The notes under the pieces were generated by a model. That model did no database searches. It saw only the letters and a list, made by a program, of their open reading frames with translations, and was not told where the DNA came from. Of a stretch of 64,000 bases of DNA, positions 56,989-64,000 are shown in pieces (the stretch's first letter is position 1; each line of letters starts with the position of its first letter). Source of the stretch: Deltaproteobacteria bacterium (GTDB lineage Bacteria; Desulfobacterota; DSM-4660; Desulfatiglandales; Desulfatiglandaceae); assembly GCA_021737785.1 (NCBI GenBank), contig JAIPDI010000002.1, positions 124,001 to 188,000 of the forward strand, in the 5' to 3' direction. Made by a program: the position numbers and the translations under genes.

Positions 56989-57909
56989 TCACTTCAAGAA
57001 TCCCTGTATAATCCGGTTCACGGCCTCATCATAGGTGAGCCCCAGGCTCATGAGTTTCATCAACTGGTCATCCGCGATCTTCCCGATAGAGGCCTCGTGG
57101 GTGAGTTCTGCATCCGGATGCCTGGCCTTCAGAGAGGGAACCGTTTCATTGGAGCCGTTTTCCATGAGGATCGCATCGCATTCGATGTGCCCGAAGCATT
57201 TGGCCCGGGCATCCATGGTGGCATAAAAATCCTGCTTCGAATTCCCCCGGATGACCGACCGGGAAATCATGTTGGACTTGCTGTTTTCACCGGCCAGGAT
57301 GATCTCATTTCGGGACACCGCGGTTTGATTGCCGTCGGTCATGACCCGTTCGGTGATAAGGAGGGAGCTTCCCGCAGAGAGTTCCGCGGTATTGACCCGA
57401 TCGGCCTCATCCACCCCCCCGAGCTGGCTCAACTCCATTTCCGCATAAGCGCCCTCGGCCAGATAGACCTTTGTGGTCGGGCTCAGTGCCCGCTTCCCCT
57501 TGCCTTCGCCCAAGGCCACATGCTTCTCCACGTATTTGACTCGTGCGCCCTCTTTAACCTGGAATTCATGGATTCCCTCGTGCCCCTGTGACTTGGAAGT
57601 GCCGCAATGGATCCCGCACCCGGCAACGATGGTGACATCCGAGTCCTCTCCGATGATAAAGGTGTTGTATACCACATCGTGGAGACCGGCCTGGCTTACA
57701 ATAACGGGGATATGAACCGATTCATTGACCGTGCCCGGCCTGATTCGGACGATGATCCCGGACCCTGCTTCATTGGCCTCGATATTAATATTGGCCGACA
57801 CCTCCCGGCCCAGAAGCTCGCCGTTCTTTCGAATATTGTAGGCCCCTTTGGGAATCCCCTCCAGGTCTGCAACCGCCTTCAACAGATCTTTATCGATAGC
57901 ATCTAACAT
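56989..57909 (-). CDS. sufB: SufB/SufD-like Fe-S scaffold subunit (short type)
   Basis: 306 residues from the ATG at 57909, with GGAG 6 nt upstream; the frame opens at 57936. SufBD core blocks are GIIVRIRPGTVNESVHIPV, IIGEDSDVTIVAGCGIHCGT and TRLARHPDAELTHEA-like SLKARHPDAELTHEASIGK near the C-terminus. It is much shorter than canonical SufB (about 470), the size of the minimal SufBC systems of anaerobes. It overlaps sufC by 20 nt. It binds nascent clusters and works with the SufC ATPase. Confidence 0.9.
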   Translation of the reverse strand: MLDAIDKDLLKAVADLEGIPKGAYNIRKNGELLGREVSANINIEANEAGSGIIVRIRPGTVNESVHIPVIVSQAGLHDVVYNTFIIGEDSDVTIVAGCGIHCGTSKSQGHEGIHEFQVKEGARVKYVEKHVALGEGKGKRALSPTTKVYLAEGAYAEMELSQLGGVDEADRVNTAELSAGSSLLITERVMTDGNQTAVSRNEIILAGENSKSNMISRSVIRGNSKQDFYATMDARAKCFGHIECDAILMENGSNETVPSLKARHPDAELTHEASIGKIADDQLMKLMSLGLTYDEAVNRIIQGFLK

Positions 57910-58651
57910 CGGTCTCTCCTTCACAGATCTCTTCATATCCGCATGCGCTCAGGTCCTTCAGGAGGGCGGAGGCCCCATCCAGATCCCCTGCATAGGCGAT
58001 CCTTCCCTTCCTGATAAGGAGGAGGGTATCCGCGGCCGACAAGAAGGCCCGATTGTGACTGACCACAATGGTGGTGGTCCCATAGGCCTCCTGCTCCCGT
58101 TTCAGGAGCTGCACCATCGGATCGATGGTCCAGAGGTCAATCCCCGTATCAGGCTCGTCATATATGGCGACCCTGGGATTGCGGGCGATGGTGGTGGCCA
58201 GTTCCACCTTCTTGATCTCCCCGCCGGACAATTTTGAATCCACCGGCTTGTCCAGAAAATCGAGGGAGCAGATCCCTACACGGGCCACGATCTTCAGCAG
58301 TTTATCCTCATCATCCGTGCCCGCAGCGATGGAGAGAAGGTCGCGGAAGGTGGTGCCCTTGAACCGGGCCGGGTGCTGGAAACTGTAGGCAATTCCTGAC
58401 CGGGCCCTCTCTGTTATACCGAGTCGTGTGATGTCCTTCCCCTCTAATAAAATAGATCCTGAAGTCACATTATATACCCCCATTATCAGTTTCGCGAGGG
58501 TGGTCTTGCCGCTCCCGTTCGGGCCGGTGATGGCATAAAACTTCCCCTTCTCAAAGGTGTAGCTCACCCGGTCGATAATGGTCTTCAGAGCTCCCTTTTC
58601 AGGAGCGTTCGAATCCGGTACGGAAAAAACAATATCTTTGATCTCAAGCAT
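57890..58651 (-). CDS. sufC: SufC ATPase of the Fe-S cluster assembly system
   Basis: 253 residues from the ATG at 58651 (MLEIKDIVFSVP), the normal SufC N-terminus. ABC ATPase motifs: Walker A GPNGSGKTT, signature LSGGEIKKVE, Walker B VAIYDEPDTGID and switch VVSHN. It is cytoplasmic, drives SufB conformational change during cluster formation. No sufS or sufU gene is adjacent, so sulfur must come from elsewhere. Confidence 0.93.
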   Translation of the reverse strand: MLEIKDIVFSVPDSNAPEKGALKTIIDRVSYTFEKGKFYAITGPNGSGKTTLAKLIMGVYNVTSGSILLEGKDITRLGITERARSGIAYSFQHPARFKGTTFRDLLSIAAGTDDEDKLLKIVARVGICSLDFLDKPVDSKLSGGEIKKVELATTIARNPRVAIYDEPDTGIDLWTIDPMVQLLKREQEAYGTTTIVVSHNRAFLSAADTLLLIRKGRIAYAGDLDGASALLKDLSACGYEEICEGETDVRCYR

Positions 58652-58985
58652 ATGGAACCCTCTCTTTCCTGACATTTTTATAAAATTATATCATACTTCC
58701 CGGACAAAATCTTGGCTTTTCTTCCGCCTTTCCGGCCACCGTTCCACACAGCGCCCGGACCGCCCCTCCCTATCGGGGAATGGGATTCTCAGGAATACCC
58801 TTTCGGGCAGAACCGGCGTTCTCATTTACTCAGTGATACAAAAGCGATCGGGCAAATGAAAAACGCGGATTTCAAATAGAGAGAGGCTGAAAGGAAAATG
58901 GTTTTTTGAAGGGATGCGCTTTAATTCCCCCATGGACAAAAGATAAAAGGCCAAAACAGGCCAGGTGCCCACTCCTTAAAGGACG

Positions 58986-59016
58986 CCGGTTGCCGGAAAT
59001 GGGAGCCGGTTTTTTC
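58986..59016 (+). terminator. GC hairpin with T-tract
   Basis: CCGGTTGCC-GGAAAT-GGGAGCCGG (one mismatch, one wobble) followed by TTTTTTC. It lies in the gap right of sufC and would stop rightward transcription; no plus gene is seen before it. Confidence 0.5.
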
Positions 59017-59033
59017 AGTCCTTAAAAGGGATA
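59012..59033. repeat. Left copy of 22-bp direct repeat (other copy 59161-59182)
   Basis: TTTTCAGTCC-TTAAAAGGGATA here and TTTTCAGTCC-TAAAAAGGGCTA at 59161-59182 match at 20 of 22 positions. The right copy spans the break between tRNA-Phe and foreign sequence, so this copy may be an older island end. Confidence 0.6.
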
Positions 59034-59086
59034 CCTTCTGAATAAAAGCGTACCAGGAGTGTGCCAAAGTGAGTTTACAAAAAAAA

Positions 59087-59112
59087 GGACTTACAGCCAT
59101 GGCCGTAAGCCC
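59087..59112 (-). terminator. Rho-independent terminator of the tRNA-Phe transcript
   Basis: On the minus strand GGGCTTACGGCC pairs with GGCTGTAAGTCC (two G-U wobbles) and is followed by eight U. It sits 11 nt beyond the CCA end of the tRNA fragment, exactly where a tRNA terminator is expected. Confidence 0.8.
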
Positions 59113-59122
59113 TTATTTTTAC

Positions 59123-59170
59123 TGGTGCCGAGACCAGGAATTGAACCAGGGACACGGGGATTTTCAGTCC
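59123..59170 (-). other. 3' fragment of tRNA-Phe(GAA): island attachment-site remnant
   Basis: The minus strand reads GGACTGAAAATCCCCGTGTC, continuing through the TTCAATT T-loop to TCTCGGCACCA: the anticodon loop with GAA, the 3' side of the anticodon stem, variable loop, T arm, acceptor 3' strand and CCA. The 5' half (D arm, acceptor 5' strand) is missing; sequence departs from tRNA immediately beyond position 59170. This is the classic footprint of a tyrosine-recombinase integration at a tRNA 3' end. Confidence 0.88.
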
Positions 59171-59234
59171 TAAAAAGGGCTATGTAAGGAATTGGAACCA
59201 TTGATCTTTTTTCAATGTTTTTAAGTTGTTACAT

Positions 59235-59365
59235 TTCTTTGCAGGTATTCGTTGTGGGTCTGTTTGGTGTCTGTTTTGGTGTGTGTCTGCTACAATTCTG
59301 CTACATTTTTCTGCGCCCATATTCAATAATAAGTGGGGTCTGTTCGGGGTCTGTTTTGGGTCTAT
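59235..59365. repeat. Short GGTCTGTTTTGG-type direct repeats
   Basis: Repeats of GGGTCTGTTTGGTGTCTG and GGGGTCTGTTCGGGGTCTG occur at about 59257-59290 and 59336-59362, close to the att site. The whole stretch 59183-60327 has no gene that I can support; the open frames here have repetitive, non-protein-like composition. Confidence 0.45.
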
Positions 59366-59857
59366 TCACATCTGCATCTATGTTTGAAATAATGAACTCA
59401 CACGCCCACCGCACTACCGAAATCGCCGGCATGGAAACACGGGGGAAGCCCGGCGAAAGCTGAGCCCGTGTCAATGTGGGGGCGTATTTTATCGTTGGCG
59501 AATCAAACTGATTGGCGTGATCGCGCGGACAAATTAGCTGAAATCGATTGAGTATGGCAACCTCGTATTTCATGGTCGAATTTAATCAACAGAAATATGT
59601 GAGAGAAGCCACCGAAAATCAGAGAAGAAATAGGATGGGACCCAAGGCTTAGCATTGCTAATTCTGATTTAGACTAAATGAATCAGTATGGGAAGTATCT
59701 ATCATCTATGGTAATGGGTCCGATCACACCCTACGCCATATTTTGAGGTTAACCTGTTGAAAATATTGACCCGGGGTCGCCAAATAAAGGGCAAAACAAA
59801 AAGCAAACAAATTTGATCAGATAATTTTTCCTTTGCAGGATAGCCAACAATCAAATC

Positions 59858-59901
59858 AGCCTGAGATCTCCATAGCGCGGAGAGGTCTCAGGCTTTTTTG
59901 T
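59858..59901 (+). terminator. Rho-independent terminator
   Basis: AGCCTGAGATCTCC and GGAGAGGTCTCAGGCT form a long stem around a 7-nt loop, followed by TTTTTTG. It would end rightward transcription from the uncharacterised 59.2-59.85 kb stretch, which suggests an RNA or lost gene there. Confidence 0.75.
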
Positions 59902-60327
59902 CTCCTGCTGCCGGTACCTTTCAATGGTCAGCTTTCCCGGGAAATTGCAGGCCTCGGAGGTGATCGATTAGGGGGATGTCTGGAACTGCGGCAAGCCTTG
60001 CGCCAAGACCATACTTTGTCAGCCCATGCAAATGGCCTTTGACAATTCAGGATTCCGGGAAGTGCCCGTCCCTACCCTATCCTTTCGGGCGCCACTCCGC
60101 GGCCAGTCATATCCTGCAGCGGGGCAGAAGGATATAACCTATTAAACTTAATCGTAAAATTTCTATTTTTGTGACGAAGTCCCTTTCTGCCTTGACAATC
60201 GCTGGATGCCATACTATGAATTCACAAGTACAACATTTTGGTTTTATTACTATTTCCTACGAATAATCTTCTGTTCATTCCCGCTGTTCTGGAAAATTGA
60301 ACCTATCTTCCCCGGGAGGGATTTTCC

Positions 60328-60615
60328 ATGACCGTTAACAAGGCTCATCTTTCATCCGTGATCTGTAACAGGCTCGACGTTCCTAATGGACAAGCCTCCC
60401 ATCTTCTGGAATCCCTATTGGCAAAAATTAAAGGAACCCTTGCTTCTGGTGAGGATGTTCTTATCAGCGGGTTCGGGAAATTCTCTGTGAAAGAGAAAAA
60501 TGAAAGGAGGGGCAGGAATCCGCAGACAGGGGATGACTTGATGCTTGATGGCAGGAGGGTTGTAAGGTTTAGACCTTCATCGGTCCTTAGGGAAAAGATA
60601 AATTGGGATAGCTAA
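60328..60615 (+). CDS. Integration host factor / HU-like DNA-bending protein
   Basis: 95 residues: MTVNKAHLSSVICNRLDVPN leads to the HU/IHF signature GEDVLISGFGKFSVKEKNERRGRNPQTGD and RVVRFRPSSVLREKIN. The RNPQTG beta-arm tip with the intercalating proline is present; it is closest to IHF-alpha. GGGAGGG precedes the ATG. It bends DNA during recombination and transcription; at the island edge it may serve integration or local regulation. Confidence 0.93.
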   Translation: MTVNKAHLSSVICNRLDVPNGQASHLLESLLAKIKGTLASGEDVLISGFGKFSVKEKNERRGRNPQTGDDLMLDGRRVVRFRPSSVLREKINWDS

Positions 60616-60752
60616 CTCGCCAAAATCCCTACGATAAGTTTCTCATAACGGAGGCATGGGGTTTTGTATTTTGTGACTAGAGGATTGTCCCATCTTCATT
60701 AGAAAACTGTCACACAAATTTTTATTATGCCCAAAAACGGAGACGATGTCAT

Positions 60753-61646
60753 ATGGCTAATGTAAAACCACCTGGCAAAACTCGTCTACTCGCTGAGGGT
60801 CTCATCCATGCGGCGATGCGCATCCTTCGCGACAACGGTAGAGAAATGCCTATACGCGAGGTCATGGCGCGCGTCGAGAAAGAAGTCGACCTGTCCGATT
60901 GGGCGAAGGAACGTTTCGAGAAGTCCGGGTACATACGGTGGCAGTCCATCCTCCACTTCTACAGCATTGACTGCGTCAAGGCCGGCTATCTTGTCAAAAA
61001 GAAGGGTGTGTGGTACCTAACACCTGAGGGTGAAGAAGCCATCGAGATGGGTCCGGCCAAGCTACTGGACTCCGCCACGCGTGCATACCGGAAATGGCGG
61101 GCGGAGCAGCCTTCCGATACGGTACCAGAAACCGATGACGCGGCCGCCGACGAGACATCCATGGCGTTTGAGGAGGTCGAGCAAGTCGCCATATCGGGCT
61201 TCGAACACTACATCGGCGATCTGAACGCATACGAATTTCAAGATCTTGTTGCTGCGCTCCTTCGCGGAATGGGTTACTATACGCCCTTCATTGCGCCCCG
61301 AGGCAAAGACGGCGGGGTGGATGTCATGGCCTACAGGGACCCCCTCGGAACACAATCCCCACGGATCCAAGTGCAGATCAAACATCGTGGTACCCCAGCG
61401 TCCGTTCAAGAGGTCAGACAGTTGATGGGGTTGTTACAGAAAGAGGGAGATGTGGGCATCTTTGTTTCGACAGGAGGGTTCACCCCTGACGCCAAGACCA
61501 CTGCCAGAGGATCACATGTTCACGTCGAATTGATCGACCTCCCCCGGTTCATCACGCTCTGGCAAGAGTTCTATGACAAAATGTCGGACACAGAAAAGAG
61601 CCTGATGCCGCTGACCCCGATCTATTTTCTCGCGAAGAAAGAATAG
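60753..61646 (+). CDS. Mrr-type restriction endonuclease
   Basis: 297 residues. N-terminal Mrr_N winged helix (about residues 12-97, RWQSILHFYSIDCVKAGYL). The C-terminal catalytic PD-(D/E)xK domain starts near residue 155: YEFQDLVAALLRGMGY, then GKDGGVD with Asp190 and QVQIK with Gln208 and Lys210. Mrr cleaves methylated or otherwise modified foreign DNA. It stands alone without a methyltransferase, consistent with a type IV enzyme in a defence island. Confidence 0.92.
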   Translation: MANVKPPGKTRLLAEGLIHAAMRILRDNGREMPIREVMARVEKEVDLSDWAKERFEKSGYIRWQSILHFYSIDCVKAGYLVKKKGVWYLTPEGEEAIEMGPAKLLDSATRAYRKWRAEQPSDTVPETDDAAADETSMAFEEVEQVAISGFEHYIGDLNAYEFQDLVAALLRGMGYYTPFIAPRGKDGGVDVMAYRDPLGTQSPRIQVQIKHRGTPASVQEVRQLMGLLQKEGDVGIFVSTGGFTPDAKTTARGSHVHVELIDLPRFITLWQEFYDKMSDTEKSLMPLTPIYFLAKKE

Positions 61647-61738
61647 TCAATTGCTTGCTACGCCATTTTAGGTCCCGGTTTTTCTCGGTAAAATTTTGCC
61701 AAAGGACAATTAACGATGACTAATAGTTTCTGTACAGA

Positions 61739-61751
61739 TTTTCGGCAAATT
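61739..61751 (+). promoter_or_regulatory. 13-bp repeat TTTTCGGCAAATT (copy 1)
   Basis: The identical 13-mer is found at 62829-62841, each in the leader of an island transcription unit (24 nt and 72 nt before the start). It may be a shared operator or promoter part. Confidence 0.4.
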
Positions 61752-61774
61752 ATTTGTATTTTTAAGGAGAATCC

Positions 61775-61990
61775 TTGTCAAACGAGAAAGATCAACGAAT
61801 ATTCGAATACCTTGCCGCGCTGGAGGACGTCAATAATCAGCTGATCCTCGCGCTCAAAAAATGCGTGGAGGTCCTGGCGCAATTCCAAAATTTTGTACCG
61901 GACCCGCATGGCTGGCAGGAGATGCTGGATCTCTTTGAGGTGACGATCAGGGAGGGGGAAAGGGTTGCCACGGACAAGACGCTGCATTGA
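61775..61990 (+). CDS. Small helical protein, first gene of a three-gene cassette
   Basis: 71 residues beginning at a TTG (61775) behind AAGGAGAATCC. Heptad-like ALEDVNNQLILALKKCVEVLAQF suggests a helical hairpin or coiled coil. The stop overlaps the next start codon (TTGA). No family recognised; the three genes 61775-62665 appear as one operon. Confidence 0.65.
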   Translation: MSNEKDQRIFEYLAALEDVNNQLILALKKCVEVLAQFQNFVPDPHGWQEMLDLFEVTIREGERVATDKTLH

Positions 61991-62463
61991 TCGAGCACGC
62001 CATGCCCTCCCCTTCACGCGATTCGGTGTTTAACAGGACGGTTCTCTCCAGAATTCTGTTGCTGACAATCCTGTTTACCGGGATTGGGGTGATCGTGTAC
62101 TGGGATTTTTCCCGGGTTGAAAAAGACTTTTCAAGGCTGAAAGCCCTGCTCCAGGAGTCCCGTTACCGGGCCATCACCCTGGACAAGATGATTATGGTTC
62201 AATTTCTTGGAAAAATTGTGAAGGTCACGGATGGAAAAACCGACAAGATCTTGTGGATCCTCATTGTCCCGACCCTGCACCAGGTCAATTATGACACCAC
62301 GCTCGGCGACGACACGATCGTTTTTGACGGGCACGGGACAGCGGCATGGAACAAGAGAGAGCATGGCGGTGACGTGCGGCTGAAATCGTGGCTGGGGTTC
62401 CGGAAAAATATCGCCGTGAATTGTACGGGGTTGGTGAGTGAGGGGGTGTATCCGGGGCAGTGA
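61987..62463 (+). CDS. Membrane-anchored pseudopilin (GspH/FimT)-like protein
   Basis: 158 residues from TTG 61987, or 153 from ATG 62002. One N-terminal transmembrane helix (SRILLLTILFTGIGVIVYW) continues into a long helix (LKALLQESRYRAITLDKMIMVQF). The C-terminal beta domain has TTLGDDTIVFDGHGTAAW and KNIAVNCTGLVSEG, the layout of GspH/FimT minor pseudopilins. However, the prepilin cleavage motif (G followed by FTLIE) is absent, so it is probably not processed. Function unknown. Confidence 0.6.
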   Translation: MIEHAMPSPSRDSVFNRTVLSRILLLTILFTGIGVIVYWDFSRVEKDFSRLKALLQESRYRAITLDKMIMVQFLGKIVKVTDGKTDKILWILIVPTLHQVNYDTTLGDDTIVFDGHGTAAWNKREHGGDVRLKSWLGFRKNIAVNCTGLVSEGVYPGQ

Positions 62464-62485
62464 ACCAGGGGATCGAGGGCGTGGA

Positions 62486-62665
62486 ATGGCTGAGAAGGTG
62501 GATGAAAAGGAAATCGTGACCTTCAAGGAACTCCTGATGAGCCAGGTGATCCAGCTGGACGCCGTGACGCAGTTATTGATCGAAAAGGGGCTCATTACGG
62601 AGGAGGAGTTTTACGCGAAATTGAAGGCGGTGCAGGGGGAGTATGAGAGGAGGGGGAAAGAGTGA
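62486..62665 (+). CDS. Small acidic helical protein
   Basis: 59 residues from the ATG at 62486 (MAEKVDEKEIVTFKELLMSQ); the frame opens at 62438 inside the upstream gene's end. Highly charged helices (QLDAVTQLLIEKGLITEEEF, KLKAVQGEYERRGKE), the ITEEEFYAKL segment resembling the nitrile-hydratase-like/SHOCT-type helical hairpin found in many small proteins. Third gene of the cassette. Function unknown. Confidence 0.65.
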   Translation: MAEKVDEKEIVTFKELLMSQVIQLDAVTQLLIEKGLITEEEFYAKLKAVQGEYERRGKE

Positions 62666-62761
62666 GGGGTGCGGAAGGGCTTCAAGTGGAACCGATCAGA
62701 TTTTCGTAGTCTCTCGGTAAAGGACCGAAAAACGCCTCAACGGTCCAGAGCAGGATGTTCC

Positions 62762-62790
62762 ATATCATCGATATCTTACGCCGATGATAT
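62762..62790. promoter_or_regulatory. Inverted repeat upstream of the MltR-like gene
   Basis: ATATCATCG (62762-62770) and CGATGATAT (62782-62790), perfect 9-bp arms with an 11-nt spacer, 122 nt before the MltR-like start. Candidate operator or hairpin. Confidence 0.45.
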
Positions 62791-62828
62791 CCAACAATGA
62801 AGAGGGCCAACGAGACAGTTTTTGTCAG

Positions 62829-62841
62829 TTTTCGGCAAATT
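62829..62841 (+). promoter_or_regulatory. 13-bp repeat TTTTCGGCAAATT (copy 2)
   Basis: Second copy of the 13-mer at 61739-61751, here 71 nt before the MltR-like start codon and preceded, like the first, by CAG. Confidence 0.4.
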
Positions 62842-62912
62842 TTGACACTTTTTCCTCAAAATTGATTGATTTAAATTCCATCATTTTTCAAACCGAATAG
62901 GATCGACGAGGT

Positions 62913-63461
62913 ATGCACCCTATGTCTTTGACTTCGGCATTTGATGATTTCGCTGATGATTTCCTCGCGGAAAGGACGCCGCGGTTGATGATCATTGTCG
63001 GCGCGTCAAAGGTTGACGCTTTGTTGTATGGGATCCTAGCTGCGTACCTCCTGCCGAAGCGAGCAAAGTCACGCGAACAGGATGAACTGCTGGAAGGTGA
63101 TCGACCTCTTGGGACGTTCAGTTCTCGTATTAAGATCTGTTATCGCTTGGCCATTGTCGACGAATCTCTTTATTTGGTTCTGGAGACGCTCAGGTCAATC
63201 CGTAATGCGAGTGCACATTCCATTGCGTTCGATACGGGAAAGTCCCCCATACGTGAACATATCTCAGAACTCCGCAAACGGGTTGAACCACGTTCGTCGT
63301 ACAAGTGGACCAGAGAACGTTACTTTGCCAACTCGTCTCTGAGCACAGTAGAAGAAGTTCAGTGTCTTCTTCTGACAATCTGCGTACTTCTAGAGGGCGT
63401 CAGGAAAAAGACTACTCGGACAAAGGCCAACAAGACTACAATGGCAATTTCGAAACGCTAA
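62913..63461 (+). CDS. MltR-like protein (mannitol repressor family fold)
   Basis: 182 residues (start 62913 or ATG 62922). RLMIIVGASKVDALLYGILAAYLLP, DRPLGTFSSRIKICYRLAIV and LRSIRNASAHS match the MltR/DUF4145-like all-helical family, in which RN-x-x-AH recalls the HEPN motif. In defence islands such proteins may be HEPN-like or regulators rather than mannitol repressors. No mannitol genes are near. It ends 9 nt before a DGQHR-type gene, so they are one operon. Confidence 0.75.
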   Translation: MHPMSLTSAFDDFADDFLAERTPRLMIIVGASKVDALLYGILAAYLLPKRAKSREQDELLEGDRPLGTFSSRIKICYRLAIVDESLYLVLETLRSIRNASAHSIAFDTGKSPIREHISELRKRVEPRSSYKWTRERYFANSSLSTVEEVQCLLLTICVLLEGVRKKTTRTKANKTTMAISKR

Positions 63462-63470
63462 AGGAGAATC

Positions 63471-64000
63471 ATGAAGAAGAAGAAGAAAGCATCTCCACTC
63501 CTGTGTCCCGCCGTTCGGGCTAAGGTTCTCGGCGTCAATGTGTATCGCGGATTTGCGAAGTTGTGTGAATTGGCAGAGGTTTCACGCGCAGACATCTATG
63601 ACGCGCAGAGTAACCCGAAGGGAACGCAGAGAGACCTGAGCGCAGCGCATGCACGCGACGCCTACGAGTACGTCAAGAACCATGACTTGGGGTTTTGGCC
63701 GGAGGTCTTTTTGTGCGCCCGGAATAACAACGTGGTGACTTTCCAGCCACTCTCGGACGAGATGCCCGATCTCGGGTTACTGGAAATCGATCTCGCAACG
63801 GCCAAGAACAAGTCGATCATCGCCATTTCGCGTGTCGACGGGAACCACCGACTGCACTACGCCGATGGTGCCGAGTCGGGTTACGGTCGTATTGAGAAAG
63901 TGGTGTCCTTCTGTTTGGCTTACGACCTGAGTCGTGCGGAAGAAATTCAGCTGTTCAAGGACATCAACAAGAACCAGAAACCCATGAACACCAGCCACCT
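63471..64000 (+). CDS. DGQHR/DndB-like protein, cut by window end
   Basis: 176 residues visible from the ATG at 63471, which follows AAGGAGAATC; the frame remains open to the last base. GTQRDLSAAHARDAYEYVKN and DGNHR at residues 123-127 (the DGQHR motif) with FKDINKNQKPMNTSHL match the DndB/DpdB (ParB-like) group. DndB regulates DNA phosphorothioation, and DpdB takes part in 7-deazaguanine DNA modification; DGQHR proteins are frequent in defence islands. Downstream genes outside the window would decide the system. Confidence 0.85.
   Translation, partial: MKKKKKASPLLCPAVRAKVLGVNVYRGFAKLCELAEVSRADIYDAQSNPKGTQRDLSAAHARDAYEYVKNHDLGFWPEVFLCARNNNVVTFQPLSDEMPDLGLLEIDLATAKNKSIIAISRVDGNHRLHYADGAESGYGRIEKVVSFCLAYDLSRAEEIQLFKDINKNQKPMNTSH

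What the first reader, a model, noticed from the sequence alone, without database searches (positions are those of the whole stretch)
59123..59182. tRNA-Phe 3' fragment marks the left border of an integrated island
The minus strand carries the anticodon-to-CCA half of tRNA-Phe with its own terminator 11 nt downstream, but the 5' half is replaced by unrelated sequence. The chromosome side is therefore left and the foreign side right. Genes to the right (IHF-like, Mrr, MltR-like, DGQHR) are of accessory type.
Basis: partly seen in the sequence, partly recalled or inferred. Interest (0 to 1): 0.6.

Follow-up and report, generated by a model that had tools for sequence, protein, structure and literature searches.

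The report
Integrase-less defence island in tRNA-Phe
A 13.9-kb block of foreign DNA carrying restriction-type genes sits in this bacterium's only known phenylalanine tRNA gene, flanked by the usual 48-bp scar and paired recombinase-type repeats but no longer holding its own integrase: an ordinary mobile-element insertion, mapped to the base.

Summary
Window 59123-59170 (minus strand) is the anticodon-arm-to-CCA half of tRNA-Phe, and the window holds no other copy. The predicted partner exists on the same contig outside the window: a complete tRNA-Phe 13.9 kb to the right (C2:197044-197119), same orientation, identical over all 48 nt. Joining the tRNA to the DNA left of the fragment recreates a site that aligns without a break to the intact tRNA-Phe locus of a sister species; the actual island junction aligns only to the end of the tRNA. 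In four relatives, one of the same genus, a tyrosine integrase gene ends 10-42 nt from tRNA-Phe; six relatives hold similar 3' fragments. So this tRNA is a recurrent integration site. What fails is the integrase: none lies in the island or on its contig. What remains is a paired repeat, TGTAGCAGAA-(1-2)-TGTAGCAG, found exactly twice in 5.33 Mb, just inside each island end. Its shorter-spaced form lies beside tyrosine integrases and tRNA genes in 11 of 13 matching viral contigs. Best reading: a tRNA-targeted integrative element that lost its integrase (CIME-like) and carries restriction genes. New member of a known kind; low interest.

The parts
59123..59170 (-). tRNA-Phe 3' fragment (nt 29-76), the displaced att copy
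   Evidence: 48/48 identical to complete tRNA-Phe at C2:197044-197119
59079..59112 (-). native tRNA-Phe terminator left on the chromosome side
   Evidence: hairpin plus T8; the sequence after the fragment matches the sequence after intact tRNA-Phe in G001, G050, G011, G007, G017
57890..58675 (-). chromosomal flank: SufC-like ABC ATPase
   Evidence: ABC_tran; 90% identical in G001, next to the SufBD gene
56989..57936 (-). chromosomal flank: SufB/D core protein
   Evidence: PF01458 1e-25
59171..64000 (.). left 4.8 kb of the 13,873-bp island interior (continues to C2:197043, where the complete tRNA-Phe lies)
59287..59305 (-). TGTAGCAGAATTGTAGCAG, likely arm-type integrase-binding pair; partner at C2:196954-196973 at the other island end
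   Evidence: exactly two occurrences in 5.33 Mb, none in 84 other genomes of the order; lies beside integrases in viral contigs
59258..59355 (-). four AACAGAC repeats in two pairs spaced 11 bp, flanking the arm pair; possible accessory sites
60328..60615 (+). HU/IHF-like protein
   Evidence: PF00216 1.3e-24; IHF-alpha models below their cut-offs
60753..61646 (+). Mrr-type restriction endonuclease
   Evidence: Mrr_cat 5.8e-24, Mrr_N 8.1e-12
62913..63461 (+). weakly MltR-like protein
   Evidence: NF008234 8e-4, 19 bits against a cut-off of 149
63471..64000 (+). DGQHR-domain protein, continues beyond the window; followed by an EcoRI-type methylase and a GmrSD_N-HNH nuclease (type II RM)
   Evidence: TIGR03187 5e-28 over cut-off; PF13651 2.6e-137; PADLOC MTase_II 2e-123 and REase_II 7e-137

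Best explanation
A tyrosine-recombinase-type element integrated site-specifically into the only tRNA-Phe gene found in the genome. The element's attP carried the 3' half of tRNA-Phe and restored the gene at the right end (C2:197044-197119); the displaced original 3' half, with the native terminator, is the fragment at window 59123-59170. Recurrent fragment starts at tRNA nt 28-30 fit an anticodon-arm (Islander 'A') crossover. The element then lost its integrase (or always relied on one in trans) but kept both att arms, and it carries restriction-type cargo. Shown: 48-bp direct repeat, correct order and orientation, collinear empty site in a sister species, no tyrosine integrase on the contig, rare paired repeats at both ends. 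Inferred: which recombinase did it, the exact crossover, past mobility, and the defence role of the cargo.
For: 48/48 direct repeat 13.9 kb apart in the same orientation. Joined empty site aligns to sister species G001 over 416 nt (74%, to 143 nt past CCA) and to single-contig genome G050 over 160 nt (81%), while the real junction aligns only to the end of the tRNA in both. rex-rnhA-Zn-ribbon-tRNA-Phe order is conserved in many relatives. Integrase ORFs end 10-42 nt from tRNA-Phe in G002 (same genus), G032, G040, G051, reading towards it. tRNA-Phe 3' fragments starting at nt 28-30 in G001, G031, G039, G048, G051, and a decayed one in G018. TGTAGCAG pair exactly twice in the genome, at both island ends in the same orientation; 11 of 13 viral contigs with the 1-nt-spaced form have an integrase within 52 bp and a tRNA-Arg nearby, versus 0 of 6 control-pattern contigs near an integrase. 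Type II RM nuclease present here and absent from 60 relatives searched. The second terminator inside the right end (-22 kcal/mol) keeps the restored tRNA terminated.
Against: No integrase, relaxase or phage structural gene was recognised in the island. G+C differs only slightly (0.494 against 0.541 for the window left of the fragment). The empty-site match beyond the tRNA is short (143 nt) and only about 65% identical in that part. sufC next to an intact tRNA-Phe was not seen in any relative. In the larger viral-contig set (2-nt spacing) only 7 of 48 motif sites lie near an integrase, several hits being coding repeats or near-duplicate contigs.
Confidence: 0.9

Rival explanations
1. A still-mobile non-autonomous element (a CIME or satellite-like island) that is excised by an integrase supplied in trans from a helper.
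For: Both ends and both arm pairs are intact, and the fragment shows no decay (48/48), unlike G001's fragment, which differs from its own tRNA at three positions. A Xis-like HTH gene is present (TIGR01764 over its cut-off).
Against: None of the 11 integrase loci of the genome has a TGTAGCAG site nearby. One cargo gene (cpYpsA) is split by a frameshift. No helper element sharing the 48-bp core is present.
Confidence: 0.25
2. The interval arose by homologous recombination or a segmental duplication of the tRNA 3' half, not by site-specific integration.
For: No integrase in the interval. The terminator just inside the right end resembles that after tRNA-Phe in G006, G048 and G053, where no integrase was detected, so it might have come from another tRNA-Phe locus.
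Against: The repeat starts in the anticodon stem and ends exactly at CCA, the same extent as fragments in other genomes, and rare paired repeats sit at both ends.
Confidence: 0.05
3. The fragment is a chance tRNA-like sequence or an assembly artefact.
For: The genome is a 96-contig assembly.
Against: Exact 48-bp identity in the predicted order, on a 216-kb contig with conserved flanks on both sides.
Confidence: 0.02

Closest known systems
tDNA genomic islands of the Islander type (PMC4383910)
   Same: Intact tDNA and displaced 3' fragment bracket the island, in correct order and orientation, 2-200 kb, anticodon-arm start
   Different: No integrase gene inside, so Islander's integrase filter would reject it
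CIME, cis-mobilizable element (as defined in PMC5704250)
   Same: Keeps attL and attR but has no integration or transfer genes
   Different: Descent from an ICE or IME is not shown here; a decayed prophage or satellite is as possible
Integrase-bearing elements at tRNA-Phe in relatives G002, G032, G040, G051
   Same: Same target gene and side, with the integrase ending just past CCA
   Different: They have an integrase and lack the TGTAGCAG pair
Type II RM with EcoRI-type methylase and GmrSD_N-HNH nuclease
   Same: Methylase and nuclease adjacent here and both present in 74 of 80 loci from other bacteria
   Different: Preceded here by MltR-like and DGQHR genes, which none of those 80 loci has

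Membership tests
tDNA genomic island (Islander definition) | intact tDNA plus fragment of the same tDNA on one replicon | tested here: met
tDNA genomic island (Islander definition) | 3' fragment downstream of the tDNA, same orientation, 2-200 kb apart | tested here: met
   both on minus strand, 13.9 kb
tDNA genomic island (Islander definition) | tyrosine integrase ORF inside or overlapping the island | tested here: not met
   no PF00589 match on contig C2 in a six-frame search
tDNA genomic island (general) | uninterrupted site in a relative | tested here: met
   G001 and G050
CIME | attL and attR retained | tested here: met
   48-bp repeat and arm pairs at both ends
CIME | integration and transfer genes lost | tested here: met
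   no integrase; no transfer gene among the ORFs scanned; short ORFs were not all scanned
CIME | derived from an ICE or IME | tested here: inconclusive
   no integrase-bearing relative of this element found
CIME | mobilised in cis after accretion of a helper | not testable with these tools
   needs an experiment

The most novel reading that the evidence does not exclude
A non-autonomous defence island that still moves, using arm sites recognised by a helper integrase family that is shared across distant prophages, with its own HU/IHF-like protein as accessory factor.
Probability: 0.08. Interest if true: 0.45.

Novelty: new member of a known kind. Interest (0 to 1): 0.2.

Why it matters
It documents a tRNA-Phe integration hotspot in this bacterial family and an island that integrase-dependent finders such as Islander would miss. 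It also gives base-exact ends for a restriction-type cargo block. The arm-repeat approach (a rare paired repeat just inside both ends) may help to recognise other integrase-less islands.

Tried and rejected
Rfam on the fragment region at E<=1: no hit, because the fragment is only half a tRNA. Integrase relics in the island, sought with the genome's own integrases by tblastn and with a home-made profile: none. Own integrase loci with TGTAGCAG sites: none. Other genomes of the order with the arm pair: none of 84. A literature match for the TGTAGCAG repeat as an integrase site: none recognised among the 7 papers holding both terms, judged by title and abstract start only. The scan for the island methylase in named genomes gave only widespread RM relatives, not the same island.

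Full report
The 48 nt at window 59123-59170 (minus strand) equal nt 29-76 of tRNA-Phe. The window carries no complete tRNA and no second copy of the core. The genome does: a complete tRNA-Phe(GAA) lies at C2:197044-197119, 13,921 bp to the right measured start to start, in the same orientation and identical over all 48 nt. It is the only tRNA-Phe among the genome's tRNA loci examined (30 of 40) and the only complete match to its own sequence in the genome.

Order and polarity. To the left of the fragment lie its terminator (window 59079-59112) and the SufC-like and SufB/D genes. To the right of the complete tRNA lie a zinc-ribbon protein, rnhA and rex, an order conserved beside tRNA-Phe in many relatives. 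The island is what lies between the two copies. Its tRNA-side end supplies a new terminator.

Empty site. Joining the complete tRNA with the DNA left of the fragment gives a sequence that aligns without a break to the intact tRNA-Phe of sister species G001 (74% over 416 nt, reaching 143 nt past CCA) and to single-contig genome G050 (81% over 160 nt). The actual island junction aligns only to the end of the tRNA in both. A direct search with fragment plus post-fragment sequence matches past CCA at intact tRNA-Phe in G011, G007, G045, G017, G060 and G001.

Hotspot. In G002 (same genus), G032, G040 and G051 a tyrosine integrase ORF runs towards tRNA-Phe and ends 10-42 nt past CCA. Fragments beginning at nt 28-30 occur in G001, G031, G039, G048 and G051, and a decayed one in G018; those of G031 and G048 sit at contig ends, so a complete tRNA cut by the assembly is possible there. 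In Islander's terms this start suits an anticodon-centred crossover (PMC4383910); the exact crossover is inferred.

Missing integrase and remaining arms. A six-frame PF00589 search finds 11 places in the genome, none on contig C2. Yet TGTAGCAGAA-N(1-2)-TGTAGCAG occurs exactly twice in the genome: 70 bp from the complete tRNA and 116 bp from the fragment, on the same strand, and in none of 84 other genomes of the order. In the viral collection the 1-nt-spaced form has 13 hits; 11 have an integrase ORF within 52 bp and a complete tRNA-Arg nearby. Many of these contigs are close relatives of each other, so they are few independent cases. The 2-nt-spaced form has 48 hits, 7 near an integrase, others being coding repeats. 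A reversed control pattern has 6 hits, none near an integrase. I take the repeats as likely integrase arm sites; binding is not shown.

Cargo. HU/IHF-like, Mrr, MltR-like (weak), DGQHR, an EcoRI-type methylase, a GmrSD_N-HNH nuclease, a frameshifted cpYpsA, an HNH protein, an SNase, a small Xis-like HTH protein and a probable secreted repeat protein. The methylase and nuclease form a widespread type II RM pair, both in 74 of 80 loci elsewhere. The nuclease is absent from 60 relatives searched. A defence role is inferred from family membership.

Verdict. The object is an ordinary tRNA-targeted island that has lost its integrase, closest to a CIME as defined in PMC5704250, though its descent from an ICE or IME is not shown. 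Islander's integrase filter would reject it (PMC4383910).

Noticed in passing
C2:197044-197119 (L043:14544-14619) and window 59123-59170: Both copies carry a T-stem with a U-U mismatch (CCTGG/CCTGG), unlike every other complete tRNA-Phe from relatives that fitted the search pattern. The decayed G018 fragment has the same T-arm, so the variant may have spread with elements.
   Followed up: partly
window 59012-59030, minus: CCCTTTTAAGGACTGAAAA matches 18 of 19 bases of the junction between element flank and fragment, 0 of 20,000 shuffles of the local 400 bp. It could be a relic of an older integration at the same tRNA.
   Followed up: partly
L043:8414-8919 (island, right of the window): The cpYpsA SLOG-family gene is split between two frames: decay or a sequencing error.
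   Followed up: no
L129 (genome G022): The tRNA-Phe locus has a tandem duplication of about 15 nt of the anticodon arm (GGGACTGAAAATCCC twice); biological or assembly origin unknown.
   Followed up: no
window 62913-64000 and on to L043:6092: MltR-like and DGQHR genes precede the type II RM pair; none of 80 loci with a related methylase has either. They may be a separate unit of unknown function.
   Followed up: partly
L094:1300-1347 (G001 contig C75): The sister species has its own, diverged tRNA-Phe fragment 1.6 kb from sufC with a different downstream sequence, pointing to a separate, older event.
   Followed up: partly
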